Source of the DNA: Verrucomicrobiota bacterium
GTDB lineage: Bacteria > Auribacterota > JABMQX01 > JAFGEW01
DNA: 64,000 nt
Reading direction: 5' to 3'
Assembly (NCBI GenBank): GCA_016931415.1
Contig: JAFGEW010000093.1
Span: 1-64,000 of the forward strand
A program made the translations under genes and the position numbers. Positions 4,126 to 24,242 of the stretch are shown in pieces; within the stretch, counting starts at the first letter, position 1, and the number at the start of each line of letters is the position of its first letter. The notes below the pieces were generated by a model. It worked only from the letters and a program-made list of their open reading frames with translations, did no database searches and was not told the DNA's origin.

Positions 4126-4587
4126 GGTATGCCTGTCCTCCGAATGAGTGGAAAACTTCCGGGTCATGCCTGGGCTCGCCCGAAGTGAGACCCCACCAGA
4201 CCCGCGGGTCACACCGCCTGCCACGAGGACGACCGCACCCGCGGTCGCAGTGGCTGGCGTTGTTTTCATCTCGATGATTCCTTTGGGCAGTTGTCTGGGT
4301 GTTAGAAGAACCTTGCTGCGGGCTCCGGCCCAAGAAGCCGCGGTTCGCCTAGACCATAGGCCCTCCTGTAGATGGGCTCTGGTGCGTCTCCTATTGCTGG
4401 CGAAAGAACTAACCTACTCCCTCGCGCCAACTTATGTACGGCTGGCGCATGTTCTCAGAGAAGGAGCGTCCTCAACACCGTGTCGCTGAGAACAGTCCGT
4501 TCATCAGCAGACAAAAGCCTTGACCTGGCAAAACACTGCCGCAAAGCGGGAAGACGCTTAAGACAGAACCCCCTATCGGACGCTAGT
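4126..4587 (-). promoter_or_regulatory. Long 5' leader of the giant exported protein
   Basis: About 455 nt separate the predicted transcript start (near 4581) from the ATG at 4125. A G5 tract at 4569-4573 sits 14 nt after the -10 box. Further down, a perfect 9-bp inverted repeat (TGTTCTCAG at 4450-4458, CTGAGAACA at 4486-4494) can form a long hairpin. No convincing upstream ORF survives: the position equivalent to the ATG in the sister copy near 5205 reads CTG and meets a TAA two codons later. No named riboswitch class is recognised. Confidence 0.5.
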
Positions 4588-4717
4588 ATCATAGCACCAG
4601 GGAGCTTCTGGGTCAACGTACCTGGTCCCAGAAGGCGAAGTGTGGACGATCCGCGCAAGACCGGACGTGGTACACAGAGAAAGGCTGAGCTTGCCCAGGG
4701 CAGATGTCCAAATTCAC
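4555..4717. repeat. Left arm of ~163-bp inverted repeat
   Basis: The minus strand of this arm matches the plus strand of 5053-5216 along its length, including about 39 consecutive identical bases at the outer-promoter end (4679-4717) and then the -35, -10 and G5 elements. The two arms point away from each other. Confidence 0.75.
4588..4616 (-). promoter_or_regulatory. Sigma70-like promoter for the giant exported protein
   Basis: On the minus strand TTGACC (4611-4616) is followed by a 17-bp spacer and TATGAT (4588-4593). It lies inside the left arm of an inverted repeat whose right arm carries the promoter of the next PEP-CTERM gene. Confidence 0.65.
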
Positions 4718-5052: not shown

Positions 5053-5216
5053 GTGAATTTGGACATCTGCCCTGGGCAAGCTCAGCCTTTCCCTGTACGC
5101 CGCGCCCAGGCTTGCACGGATCGTCCACACTTGGGCTTCCAGGATCAGGTGTGTTGACCGAGACAGCAACTGATGCTATAATACGGGCGTCTGACAGGGG
5201 GATTATGTCTCAAGCG
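5053..5216. repeat. Right arm of ~163-bp inverted repeat
   Basis: Inverted copy of 4555-4717. It carries the promoter and G5 tract of the PEP-CTERM gene at 5287. Similarity fades after AAGCG at 5212-5216. Confidence 0.75.
5154..5182 (+). promoter_or_regulatory. Sigma70-like promoter of the first PEP-CTERM gene
   Basis: TTGACC (5154-5159), 17-bp spacer, then a perfect TATAAT (5177-5182). A G5 tract begins 14 nt later (5197-5201). The leader to the ATG at 5287 is about 98 nt. Confidence 0.75.
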
Positions 5217-5270: not shown

Positions 5271-5286
5271 CAAGGGGGATTCTGGA

Positions 5287-6406: not shown

Positions 6407-6435
6407 TTGACTGATCGTTGGATCCATGAAATAAT
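6407..6435 (+). promoter_or_regulatory. Sigma70-like promoter of PEP-CTERM gene 2
   Basis: TTGACT (6407-6412), 17-bp spacer, AATAAT (6430-6435). A run of eleven G starts 13 nt after the -10 box. The 279 bp between the previous terminator and this box hold no other recognisable feature. Confidence 0.65.
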
Positions 6436-6448
6436 ACACTTGTCCTTT

Positions 6449-6459
6449 GGGGGGGGGGG
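6449..6459 (+). repeat. Homopolymeric tract of 11 G in the leader
   Basis: Eleven consecutive G lie at about +8 of the predicted transcript and are followed by TTCTGTC. The same GGGGGTTCTGTC string occurs in the leader of the giant protein (minus strand, 4573-4562). Such tracts are prone to slipped-strand change. Confidence 0.7.
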
Positions 6460-20740: not shown

Positions 20741-21859
20741 TCAGTCCTGCTTCTTGGGGGGTGTGTAGTCGCGCAGGTTGCAGTCGAAGTTGGCGACGTA
20801 GAGCCACCAGTTGTTCCAGCCCCAAGCAGTGCGGCCGGGGTTCTTGGGCATGTGGGCCATCCACCAGACGAGGTACTTGGCCTGGTCCCGGCCCCATTCG
20901 GTACCGTCAACGGTGACCTGCTTGCCCGTGACGTTGGGCCAATTCACCCAATCCTCCGCGTAGGTCTCGGCCGTGCGCTTGTTGCCGTAGTCGTAGCCGT
21001 CCTGGCCGTTGGGCGGAACGTGGACGTTGCCGCAATGGCCGCTGCTGGGGAAATCCATGTCGCACATGCTCCAGGTGTTCCACGGGTCTTTGCCGGCGAG
21101 TTTCCTGTCCCACTTGCCGTTGCCGAACACAAGCGCCAGGATGCCCTCGACGCGGTGGCCGTAGCTGTGGATCGCTTCACCGAGACCGCGCTCATAGTTC
21201 CAGCCCATGACCCAGATCGTGCGGCCCAGATCGGGGATGTCGTACGGGCGGTAGAACCAGGGGTTGTCGGTCGGGGGCAGACGCTTGTCGCGGCCCGGGA
21301 TGAACATGGCGTACTCGTCCCAATGGAAACCGGGCGCGCCCCAAAGCCACACCTCGGTCACGTCAAAGTCCTCGACGAATCTCCTGGTCACGCCAGCCTC
21401 CTCGAAGATCTTGGCGTAGCTCGAGCCGTCGCCCTGGATCCATTTGTGGGTCTTGAGCACGTCCATGACGCCCGCGTCGTCGTAGCGAAAGCCGCTGCGG
21501 AACGGCGGGCAGCCGTCGACCTCGACCCATTTGACAATGTGGTAGTTGATGTAGCCGCCGCTGGCTTCACGGATGCCTTCGATAACCTGCTCGGTCAGCT
21601 TGACCGGATCGCTCCAGTGCCAGACCTCGGTGAGCTTCCTGCCGCCCTCCGCCTCGATGACGGGGTTGTAGTTCACAACAACGACGTTGGCTTGCTTCGC
21701 ACCGATGCCCTGGGCCGGGGGCCTGTAGTTCTGGCACGGATCCGCCCACCAGCCCCGCGGCGGCTGTTTCGGTACGTCGGTTGGGCTGATGGCGCTCGCG
21801 GCGGTCATGACGAGACACACGGCGACGAAAGCGCCTGCAATGATGAGACTCCTGGACAT
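20741..21859 (-). CDS. Secreted protein of unknown family
   Basis: 372 residues from ATG 21859, with GAGGAAAGGGAG upstream. A signal peptide MSRSLIIAGAFVAVCLVMTA ends near ASA. The mature part is Trp-rich (VWHWSDPVKL, WGWNNWWLYVANFDC) and well ordered, without repeats. Possible active or metal-binding residues lie in GLGEAIHSYGHRVEGIL (E-x-x-H-x-x-x-H) and SSGHCGNVHVPPNG. I do not recognise a named family. It sits between the HEAT giant and a PEP-CTERM gene, all exported and on the same strand. The candidate structured RNA with its terminator lies just upstream and may control it. Confidence 0.75.
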   Translation of the reverse strand: MSRSLIIAGAFVAVCLVMTAASAISPTDVPKQPPRGWWADPCQNYRPPAQGIGAKQANVVVVNYNPVIEAEGGRKLTEVWHWSDPVKLTEQVIEGIREASGGYINYHIVKWVEVDGCPPFRSGFRYDDAGVMDVLKTHKWIQGDGSSYAKIFEEAGVTRRFVEDFDVTEVWLWGAPGFHWDEYAMFIPGRDKRLPPTDNPWFYRPYDIPDLGRTIWVMGWNYERGLGEAIHSYGHRVEGILALVFGNGKWDRKLAGKDPWNTWSMCDMDFPSSGHCGNVHVPPNGQDGYDYGNKRTAETYAEDWVNWPNVTGKQVTVDGTEWGRDQAKYLVWWMAHMPKNPGRTAWGWNNWWLYVANFDCNLRDYTPPKKQD

Positions 21860-21998
21860 GGCGACAACTCCCTTTCCTCCATTCGTGCTTACTCGCCGAA
21901 GATGCACGTGCTCATCTCCGGCAAGCGGCATGATGCGTGATGACGCACCTGCCTCAACCCTTCCTATCTTCTAACGCACCGCCGGCCCGTCTGGCACC

Positions 21999-22028
21999 AA
22001 AAAACGGCCCCGGCTGTGCGCCGGAGCC
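21999..22028 (-). terminator. Strong Rho-independent terminator upstream of the 372-residue gene
   Basis: On the minus strand GGCTCCGGC-GCACA-GCCGGGGCC (8 of 9 pairs) is followed by G and then TTTTTT. It ends 139 bp before the next start on that strand, so it either closes an independent RNA or acts as an attenuator. Confidence 0.8.
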
Positions 22029-22209
22029 CATTCGCTCGCGTGCAGATCACAACTCAGGAGCGGCCCGACGCAGTCTCTCCCGGGGAGTCGTCCGTAACCC
22101 TCGTTCCCAGCCCTCGCACCGCGGACACAGGACGGCCGCGGCATGAATGCGTGGGGAAACCCGGTCGCCGGCCCAGATGGGATCCGGACTCGAACTCCCC
22201 CTTATCTCG
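21999..22209 (-). ncRNA. Candidate structured RNA or attenuator leader (~210 nt)
   Basis: The unit is bounded by a promoter (22216-22244) and a T6 terminator (21999-22028). Read on the minus strand, GGGGAGT (22200-22194) pairs with ACTCCCC (22088-22082), inside it GTCCG (22189-22185) with CGGAC (22094-22090), then CCC/GGG, then GTTTCCC (22160-22154) with GGGAAC (22108-22103), capped by CCGCGG (22141-22136) with CCGCGG (22124-22119). The result is a rod of about 120 nt with internal loops, a tail and then the terminator. A 6S-like rod is conceivable, but no conserved 6S sequence was recognised. Confidence 0.5.
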
Positions 22210-22215
22210 TGCAGA

Positions 22216-22244
22216 AGTATGACAGACTGGGCACCGCGCGTCAA
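22216..22244 (-). promoter_or_regulatory. Sigma70-like promoter of the candidate RNA
   Basis: Minus strand TTGACG (22239-22244), 17-bp spacer, CATACT (22216-22221), G5 tract (22197-22201) 14 nt later. The start context GAGATAAGGGGGAG is the same as in the leader of the PEP-CTERM gene at 24106. Confidence 0.55.
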
Positions 22245-22303: not shown

Positions 22304-22335
22304 CAAAAGGGAATCCCCGGCCGCTGTGACCGGGG
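22304..22335 (-). terminator. Terminator after PEP-CTERM gene 4
   Basis: Minus strand CCCCGG-TCACAGCGG-CCGGGG, then ATTCCCTTTT. It lies 30 nt past the stop and isolates the gene from the candidate RNA unit. Confidence 0.5.
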
Positions 22336-22364: not shown

Positions 22365-23021
22365 TTACCGTTTCCTCATCCGCAGGAGCAGCGCGCTCAG
22401 GCCGAGGGCGGCAAGCGCCATGGTCGCCGGCTCGGGGACAGTGCCGACCGTATACGGGGAGATCCAAAGACCGCTGACTCGCGAGTCCGTCTCTTGCTTG
22501 AGATAGGTCGTGAACGTAGCCGTTTCGCTCGGGCCGAGGGTCAACGTGATGTCCCAGGTCGGGACGCTGTCTGTGGACAGGGCAGAGGCCGTCTTCCCGC
22601 CGTAGACGGTTAACAGCGGCAGGTCGGTATCGCTCATGAGGATGTATGAGAGCGGTGCCGGCGTTGGCGTGTAAGCGGACTGGTCGGGCTCGAGGTTGAA
22701 GTCGTCTGTCGCGTCGGCCCAGTGCCAGTCGCCGGTCGCATCGGCGTAGCTGTAGGCGCGCAACACGGCATCCACCTTGAGCCAAGCAAATGGGAGCACC
22801 AGCTTGACGTCATAGTAGGTGTCGGAGCCGTCGTTGGTCACGGACCAGTCGAACCGATGCACGTGGTACGTATCCGTGTCGACGAAGTACGGATCCCACA
22901 GGTCGAGTGCGAGTGTGACGTCGCCCCCAGAGAACTGGTCGATGCCGAAGTATTCGGTTGCCGCGGCCGTCGAGACCACGGTGCAGACAAGTGCTGTCAA
23001 AGCCAGGGCGAGACTTCTCAT
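22365..23021 (-). CDS. PEP-CTERM sorted exoprotein
   Basis: 218 residues. ATG 23021 (MRSLALALTALVCTVVSTAA) lies 7 nt after GGAGGG; the ATG two codons earlier abuts that site. The mature part starts TEYFGIDQFSGGDVTLALDL and has beta-rich stretches (HRFDWSVTNDGSDTYYDVKL, WDITLTLGPSETATFTTYL), like a single Ig or jelly-roll-type domain of unknown family, unlike the three plus-strand paralogs. The tail VPEPATMALAALGLSALLLR plus MRKR is a clear PEP-CTERM signal. It has its own promoter with a G5 leader and its own terminator. Confidence 0.85.
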   Translation of the reverse strand: MRSLALALTALVCTVVSTAAATEYFGIDQFSGGDVTLALDLWDPYFVDTDTYHVHRFDWSVTNDGSDTYYDVKLVLPFAWLKVDAVLRAYSYADATGDWHWADATDDFNLEPDQSAYTPTPAPLSYILMSDTDLPLLTVYGGKTASALSTDSVPTWDITLTLGPSETATFTTYLKQETDSRVSGLWISPYTVGTVPEPATMALAALGLSALLLRMRKR

Positions 23022-23240
23022 TGCCATCCCTCCGCGAGGCGCGCGGGATCTCATTGTCCCAAGCGCGCACGCCGTTTGGCCGCAACAGATCCTGGACAGG
23101 GAACTGTCTCTCTTGCGACCGGTGAGTGCGTCGGATGATGGCAGAACACGGCAAAAGAGTTGCGACGCTTCAGTTTTGGTGAGTTACCGAAAGGTGCTGC
23201 GGCGGGAATACGCTACCATACTCCCCCTTTTCTCCAAGGC

Positions 23241-23270
23241 CATAGTGTCATATCCGAACAGGTTTGTCAA
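23241..23270 (-). promoter_or_regulatory. Probable promoter of PEP-CTERM gene 4
   Basis: Perfect TTGACA (23265-23270), 18-bp spacer, ACTATG (23241-23246), a weak -10, then a G5 tract (23223-23227) 13 nt later. CACTAT with a 17-bp spacer is the alternative -10. Confidence 0.45.
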
Positions 23271-23428: not shown

Positions 23429-24106
23429 CTAGCTGCGCTTGCGCAACCAGCCGAGCAGCAACCCGGCGGCGCCCAGGATCGACAAGGTGGCCGGCTCAGG
23501 GATCGGCGTGTACGTGTACTCGACGTCAATGGTCGCCTGTCCGAACGAGAAGTTCATCGCGACCACGTTGTTCGGAGCGTACTGCGAAGCGGTCGCGTTA
23601 CCGGTCGCGTTGTAGTCAACCGTGCCGGTGCCGATAAACGGGGACAGCTCGCCGGGCAGCGTGAACACGAAGACCTGGCTGTTGGACTGCGTGTAGCCCG
23701 GTTCCATGTATCCAGACGGGCCGGCGAAATCGATGGCGCCGTCAAACGCGTCGGCCACAACAGGCAGGATGCTGTCCAGGTGCTGCTCCACGTCGAACAG
23801 CTTGCTCATGCCCCGAGTGACCGTGACATCCTGGTCAAGCAGGTAGTGCAGTGTGTCGTCGATTTCGGAGGGGTTGAGGTTCTCATACCCGCCGCCGCCG
23901 AGAAGCTGGCCGGATATGGTCAACGTCACCTGGGTCAGCGTGCCGAGCGACGGATCGAACTGACCGATGCTCAGTGTCTGGTCGAAGTCGGTCGTGATGA
24001 GGCCGGTCGTGTCGCTGTCGGTGATAGCGGTCGCGCTCGCTCCAGCGACGGCAAGAAGCGTGACGAACACGGCAACGGCTGCTGCAAGGCTGAGTCTGCT
24101 AATCAT
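23429..24106 (-). CDS. PEP-CTERM protein with choice-of-anchor-E-like domain
   Basis: 225 residues from ATG 24106 (MISRLSLAAAVAVFVTLLAV, a signal peptide ending near ASA). The mature region TTDFDQTLSIGQFDPSLGTL TQVTLTISGQ and a later NNVVAMNFSFGQATIDVEYT match my memory of the choice-of-anchor E domain, a beta-sandwich found only with surface-sorting tails. The tail is IPEPATLSILGAAGLLLGWL plus RKRS. A GTG at 24187, spaced well from the leader G5 tract, could give a 27-residue longer product in frame, but that would bury the signal peptide. Confidence 0.82.
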   Translation of the reverse strand: MISRLSLAAAVAVFVTLLAVAGASATAITDSDTTGLITTDFDQTLSIGQFDPSLGTLTQVTLTISGQLLGGGGYENLNPSEIDDTLHYLLDQDVTVTRGMSKLFDVEQHLDSILPVVADAFDGAIDFAGPSGYMEPGYTQSNSQVFVFTLPGELSPFIGTGTVDYNATGNATASQYAPNNVVAMNFSFGQATIDVEYTYTPIPEPATLSILGAAGLLLGWLRKRS

Positions 24107-24212
24107 GGTGCGTCTTCCCTCTGTTTCTGCCCGACGGCGAACGGGCAGGATTTCCCCTACGTCGAAGTGAAGGAAAGAGGAGAACACGCAGTCTCCCCCT
24201 TATCTCGGAGGG

Positions 24213-24242
24213 AGTCTACCACAGTCGCCCGCGCGCTGTCAA
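24213..24242 (-). promoter_or_regulatory. Sigma70-like promoter of PEP-CTERM gene 5
   Basis: TTGACA (24237-24242), 18-bp spacer, TAGACT (24213-24218), then a G5 tract (24195-24199) 13 nt later in the context GAGATAAGGGGGAG. Confidence 0.65.

What the first reader, a model, noticed from the sequence alone, without database searches (positions are those of the whole stretch)
21999..22244. Rod-shaped RNA candidate ending in a T6 terminator upstream of a secreted-protein gene
A promoter of the shared type starts a ~210-nt unit with nested long-range pairings (22082-22088 with 22194-22200; 22090-22094 with 22185-22189; 22103-22108 with 22154-22160; 22119-22124 with 22136-22141), then a strong terminator. 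A terminator of the preceding gene isolates it on the other side. The next gene on the strand starts 139 bp past the terminator with no clear promoter of its own, so this may be an attenuator or riboswitch-like control of the 372-residue protein, or a separate 6S-like RNA.
Basis: partly seen in the sequence, partly recalled or inferred. Interest (0 to 1): 0.7.

Follow-up and report, generated by a model that had tools for sequence, protein, structure and literature searches.

The report
Short noncoding unit behind PEP-CTERM-type promoter
A bacterium uses the same unusual promoter and start-of-message sequence that it places before its PEP-CTERM surface-protein genes to make what looks like a roughly 210-base RNA with no coding frame, ending at a strong terminator just before another secreted-protein gene; the RNA has no detectable relatives and its folding is no stronger than chance, so it is probably a leader or small RNA of that gene set and not a new structured RNA class.

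Summary
The coordinates hold up on the minus strand: an extended -10 promoter (22244-22216), about 210 nt without coding periodicity, and a 9-bp G+C-rich terminator with T6 (22028-21999). It is the only such promoter-terminator pair in the window (0.05 expected in shuffles). The structured-RNA reading does not hold up: folding energy equals that of shuffled sequence, one of four reported helices is barely populated, Rfam finds nothing, a covariance model finds no homologue in 44 genomes of the phylum, and orthologues of the downstream gene lack the unit. The genome's 6S RNA is on another contig. Covariation could not be tested for lack of homologues. What stands out is the 5' end. Its promoter (TTGAC-N17-TGn-TATAnT) and a GAGATAAGGGGG element near the transcript start are shared with PEP-CTERM genes of this genome; a neighbouring PEP-CTERM gene has the identical 15-mer. 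A model built without the unit scores it 33.5 bits, against at most 16.8 in shuffled contigs. Best reading: a promoter of the PEP-CTERM gene set whose transcript stops 139 nt before a secreted-protein gene, acting as a mostly terminated leader. A separate sRNA or a remnant of a lost gene remain open.

The parts
22216..22244 (-). extended -10 promoter: TTGACG (22244-22239), 17-nt spacer ending TGT, CATACT (22221-22216)
   Evidence: leave-one-out score 33.5 bits against PEP-CTERM promoter modules, shuffled maximum 16.8
22195..22209 (-). transcript-start element CGAGATAAGGGGGAG; inferred start of transcription near 22209, G-run 22201-22197; identical 15-mer in the promoter region of the PEP-CTERM gene at 24106
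21999..22209 (-). predicted noncoding transcript of about 210 nt
   Evidence: promoter plus terminator; flat G+C by codon position; length inferred, no RNA data
22082..22200 (-). predicted closing helices 22194-22200/22082-22088 and 22185-22189/22090-22094; the first hides four Gs of the G-run
   Evidence: pair probabilities 0.91-1.0, but energy not below shuffles and no homologues
21999..22028 (-). intrinsic terminator: 9-bp stem, 5-nt loop, G, T6
   Evidence: hairpin -19.3 kcal/mol
20741..21859 (-). downstream gene, 372-aa secreted protein, no Pfam or NCBIfam family and no PEP-CTERM tail; starts 139 nt after the terminator
   Evidence: orthologues of 42-58% identity in other lineages
22315..22335 (-). 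terminator-like hairpin of the preceding PEP-CTERM gene, weak U-tract
23223..23270 (-). same promoter + G-run module in front of PEP-CTERM gene 22365-23018
24195..24242 (-). same module in front of PEP-CTERM gene 23429-24106
5154..5201 (+). same module in front of a PEP-CTERM gene
6407..6454 (+). same module in front of a PEP-CTERM gene
4569..4616 (-). same module, long leader, then an ORF that runs toward the contig edge

Best explanation
The unit is a promoter of this bacterium's PEP-CTERM surface-protein set followed by a leader of about 210 nt that ends at an intrinsic terminator, 139 nt before the start codon of a secreted 372-aa protein. Most polymerases would stop at the terminator, so the secreted gene would be expressed at a low level by read-through, switched on together with the PEP-CTERM genes. 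Shown in sequence: promoter, shared transcript-start element, terminator, absence of coding signal, co-directional secreted gene without a recognisable promoter. Inferred: that it is transcribed, that read-through feeds the gene, and that the shared element means shared regulation.
For: Promoter-terminator pair rarer than chance (1 against 0.05). Promoter and GAGATAAGGGGGAG shared with PEP-CTERM genes; leave-one-out score 33.5 bits. Of 30 PEP-CTERM upstream regions with a scored site, 19 have a strong promoter of this kind and 11 of those have a run of at least four G 12-20 nt after the -10 box; the chance per region is 0.042, binomial p about 4e-11. The other modules with an intact downstream reading frame lead into PEP-CTERM genes through leaders of about 77-214 nt, so a secreted-protein gene downstream is the expected target. 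The 139-nt gap has no convincing promoter.
Against: No other inspected leader of the set has a strong internal terminator. No alternative antiterminator fold was seen. The downstream gene lacks a PEP-CTERM tail, and its orthologues elsewhere are not preceded by the unit. There are no RNA data. The set was first recognised with this promoter among the hits, so the leave-one-out score is not fully independent of selection on the promoter hexamers.
Confidence: 0.45

Rival explanations
1. A free-standing small RNA of about 210 nt, made together with the PEP-CTERM genes and acting elsewhere, for example on their messages or on whatever binds the G-run element.
For: Own promoter and strong terminator, noncoding; the RNA carries the same 5' element as PEP-CTERM leaders, as a decoy might.
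Against: Structure not more stable than shuffles; no homologues in the phylum; pairing to eight start regions (seven PEP-CTERM genes plus the 372-aa gene) no better than shuffles (z = 0.13).
Confidence: 0.3
2. A remnant: a third PEP-CTERM transcription unit in a tandem array (24.2, 23.2, 22.2 kb) that lost its coding sequence and kept promoter, leader and terminator; any RNA is a by-product.
For: Three same-strand modules about 1 kb apart, the first two with PEP-CTERM genes; no coding signal and no conserved RNA.
Against: No similarity of the unit to other PEP-CTERM leaders or genes beyond the 15-mer, though that would fade with time; promoter and terminator are both intact.
Confidence: 0.18
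3. The hairpin with T6 is only a second, back-up terminator of the preceding PEP-CTERM gene, and the promoter match is chance.
For: The nearer terminator at 22335-22315 has a poor U-tract.
Against: The promoter carries the full module including the G-run element (33.5 bits against at most 16.8 in shuffled contigs).
Confidence: 0.06
4. A 6S RNA or other described structured RNA.
For: A rod-like fold is drawn by the energy model.
Against: No Rfam match; 6S is elsewhere in the genome; no homologues.
Confidence: 0.01

Closest known systems
Shared cis-regulatory site upstream of proteobacterial PEP-CTERM genes (Haft et al. 2006, PMC1569441)
   Same: Many PEP-CTERM genes of one genome, mostly single-gene units with long noncoding upstream regions, share a DNA element.
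   Different: The proteobacterial element is a sigma-54 -24/-12 site with an activator motif, and the paper found it in Proteobacteria only. Here it is a sigma-70-type extended -10 promoter plus a G-run element 12-20 nt past the -10 box, in an unnamed lineage.
Transcription attenuators / terminated 5' leaders
   Same: Promoter, leader and intrinsic terminator precede a co-directional gene.
   Different: No antiterminator alternative, leader peptide or known ligand-binding fold was found.
6S RNA (RF00013)
   Same: Similar length and a rod-like predicted fold.
   Different: No match to the family; the genome's own 6S is on another contig.

Membership tests
6S RNA (RF00013) | match to the family covariance model | tested here: not met
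   no 6S match at the locus even at E <= 10; the genome's match is G000:C39:14500-14692
6S RNA (RF00013) | conserved structure with compensatory changes | not testable with these tools
   no homologues found
Known riboswitches and leaders in Rfam | match to a described family | tested here: not met
Attenuator | promoter, leader and intrinsic terminator upstream of a co-directional gene | tested here: met
Attenuator | alternative antiterminator structure | tested here: not met
   terminator stem probability 0.90-0.997; no competing fold in partial transcripts
Attenuator | regulated read-through | not testable with these tools
   needs RNA data
PEP-CTERM promoter module of this genome | TTGAC-N17/18-TGn-extended -10 | tested here: met
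PEP-CTERM promoter module of this genome | G-run element 12-20 nt after the -10 box | tested here: met
   14 nt; identical 15-mer in the module at 24242
PEP-CTERM promoter module of this genome | PEP-CTERM gene downstream | tested here: not met
   the next gene is secreted but has no PEP-CTERM match
Proteobacterial PEP-CTERM sigma-54 site | -24 GG / -12 GC sigma-54 element | not tested
   a sigma-70-type promoter explains the sites; no dedicated sigma-54 scan was run

The most novel reading that the evidence does not exclude
This lineage controls its PEP-CTERM surface proteins through a previously undescribed element, a G-run at the start of the message behind a strong extended -10 promoter, and the unit is a small RNA of the same set that carries the element and titrates the factor that reads it.
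Probability: 0.1. Interest if true: 0.65.

Novelty: new member of a known kind. Interest (0 to 1): 0.3.

Why it matters
As an RNA the unit is ordinary or unproven. The useful result is the shared promoter and transcript-start element of many PEP-CTERM genes in this genome. A shared upstream element had been reported for Proteobacteria only (PMC1569441), and that paper says further regulators remain to be found. If real, it offers a concrete site with which to look for the regulator of PEP-CTERM/exosortase cargo in this lineage.

Tried and rejected
6S RNA. Any Rfam family (the two weak matches, BjrC68 and MicL, are only terminator-like). A tRNA-like 'GUUCGAGUC' stretch: ARAGORN finds nothing. 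Homologues by BLAST (one 34-nt match in G039, rejected because it reads as part of what looks like a coding region for a diadenylate cyclase-like protein, identified by eye; a 30-nt match in L013, rejected because it lies in the gene upstream) and by a covariance model in 44 genomes (only an E = 0.24 match, which looks coding). Phage and plasmid records (none). Upstream regions of orthologues of the 372-aa gene (some have the terminator of the neighbouring gene, none has the unit). Coding frame (none). Antisense action on start regions (no better than shuffles). A consensus RNA hairpin around the G-run (zero pairs). Leader peptides or a CsrA-like site after the G-run: considered by eye, not consistent across leaders. 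The sequence-only model R2 recovered only its eight training sites and did not list the unit at E <= 10; it scores uninformative spacer positions and uses a coarse first filter, so the direct matrix was relied on instead, which is a weakness. Searching the phylum with TTGAC-N38-GGGGG gave no clear excess outside this genome except in the same-class genome G001 (19 against 2), whose sites mostly lack -10 boxes; promoter-like sites in G006 lead into tRNA or unrelated genes.

Full report
Observation. The described feature is on the minus strand. The promoter TTGACG-N17-CATACT, with TG one base before the -10 hexamer, is at 22244-22216, and a 9-bp, 8-GC-pair hairpin followed by G and six T is at 22028-21999. 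On the whole window a promoter of at least 9/12 followed within 60-400 nt by a strong terminator occurs once, against a mean of 0.05 in 40 dinucleotide shuffles. The DNA between has G+C of 0.66/0.67/0.69 at the three codon positions, whereas neighbouring genes have 0.81-0.93 at the third, and the plus-strand ORFs there are equally flat, so it does not look coding. The preceding gene has a hairpin at 22335-22315 with a poor U-tract, and the best promoter between the terminator and the next gene is 8/12, equalled by 37% of shuffles.

Structure. The 211-nt transcript folds at -94.3 kcal/mol against a shuffled mean of -94.9 (z = 0.11), and the core at z = -0.27. Long-range pairing of this extent arises in 24 of 200 shuffles of this G+C-rich sequence. 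The rod is therefore not evidence of a structured RNA. The terminator stem has probability 0.90-0.997 and partial transcripts show no antiterminator.

Relatives. Rfam has nothing at the locus. The genome has its 6S RNA on another contig, G000:C39:14500-14692, 65.8 bits, and 6S is found over the cut-off in 29 of 43 genomes searched, nearly all of the phylum. BLAST and a covariance model of the core find no convincing homologue in 44 phylum genomes, and there is none in phage or plasmid records. Only one other genome of the class is held, so absence of homologues is weak evidence and covariation could not be tested. Orthologues of the 372-aa gene (42-58% identity) are preceded by unrelated genes or short gaps.

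What the promoter belongs to. The window has six extended -10 promoters where shuffles give 0.38. Aligning them showed a second shared feature that was not part of the search: a run of G at a nearly fixed 42-44 nt from the start of the -35 box, with CGAGATAAGGGGGAG in the unit and in the PEP-CTERM gene promoter at 24242. The exact pattern TTGAC-N38-GGGGG occurs 13 times in the 4.06-Mb genome (5 times for the reversed control). Six of the 13 lie in this window; with the sites on C30 and C82 these eight carry convincing -10 boxes and lead, where the coding sequence is intact, into proteins with PEP-CTERM tails, the exceptions being the unit and the 4616 site, whose ORF runs toward the contig edge. 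The remaining five look like chance matches in or near other genes, one of them (C79) with a TATGGT box.

Test on all PEP-CTERM genes. The genome has 33 matches over the PF07589 cut-off. Taking upstream regions on promoter score alone, 19 of the 30 with a scored site have a strong promoter of this type on the gene's strand, against 1 on the opposite strand; 11 of the 19 have at least four consecutive G at 12-14 or 19-20 nt after the -10 box, where the chance per region is 0.042 (binomial p about 4e-11). The two spacings differ by about six bases, and variants read GAGATAAGGGGG and GGGTATCGGGGGTTCTG. No consensus hairpin is found around it. A matrix made without the unit scores it 33.5 bits; the best of 12 shuffled contigs is 16.8. 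This is leave-one-out, but the sites were first picked by promoter hexamers, so only the G-run part is independent. A sequence-only covariance model returned its training sites only and did not list the unit.

Interpretation. The unit starts like a PEP-CTERM message but has no such coding sequence, and ends at a terminator 139 nt before a secreted-protein gene without a recognisable promoter. I favour a mostly terminated leader that lets a fraction of polymerases into that gene (0.45). A separate small RNA (0.3) and a remnant of a lost PEP-CTERM unit in the tandem array 24.2/23.2/22.2 kb (0.18) are live. No inspected PEP-CTERM leader has a strong internal terminator, which makes the unit the odd one out and is the main argument against the leader reading.

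Known work. Haft et al. (PMC1569441) reported a shared sigma-54-type site upstream of proteobacterial PEP-CTERM genes, stated that among their genomes only Proteobacteria shared it, and expected further regulators elsewhere. A search of the held library found no report of a G-run transcript-start element at PEP-CTERM genes (judged from titles and abstract openings; subscription papers are not covered). The element's function (DNA operator, RNA site or ribosome-loading site) is not established here.

Noticed in passing
window 5154, 6407, 4616(-), 23270(-), 24242(-); G000 C30:40256(-), C82:999(-), C92:46833, C39, C50, C54, C132: PEP-CTERM genes of this genome share an extended -10 promoter plus a G-run element (GAGATAAGGGGG or GGGTATCGGGGGTTCTG) at 12-14 or 19-20 nt after the -10 box; apparently a shared control element, not described in the papers found.
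   Followed up: partly
window, start regions of PEP-CTERM genes at 5286, 6530, 7680; L140: The Shine-Dalgarno regions of several PEP-CTERM genes read like AAGGGGGATTC, much like the G-run element at the start of the message.
   Followed up: no
G000:C39:14500-14692: The genome's 6S RNA (RF00013, 65.8 bits), followed by CTTTTTTT.
   Followed up: yes
G000 (whole assembly): No 16S rRNA match was found in the assembly, so the organism was not identified beyond an unnamed phylum of 44 held genomes.
   Followed up: no
window 31099 +: A further, weaker match (17.0 bits) to the PEP-CTERM promoter module, about the level of the best shuffled score.
   Followed up: no
window 21934-21947 (-): TGCGTCATCACGCA, an inverted repeat between the terminator and the 372-aa gene, possibly an operator or chance.
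   Followed up: no
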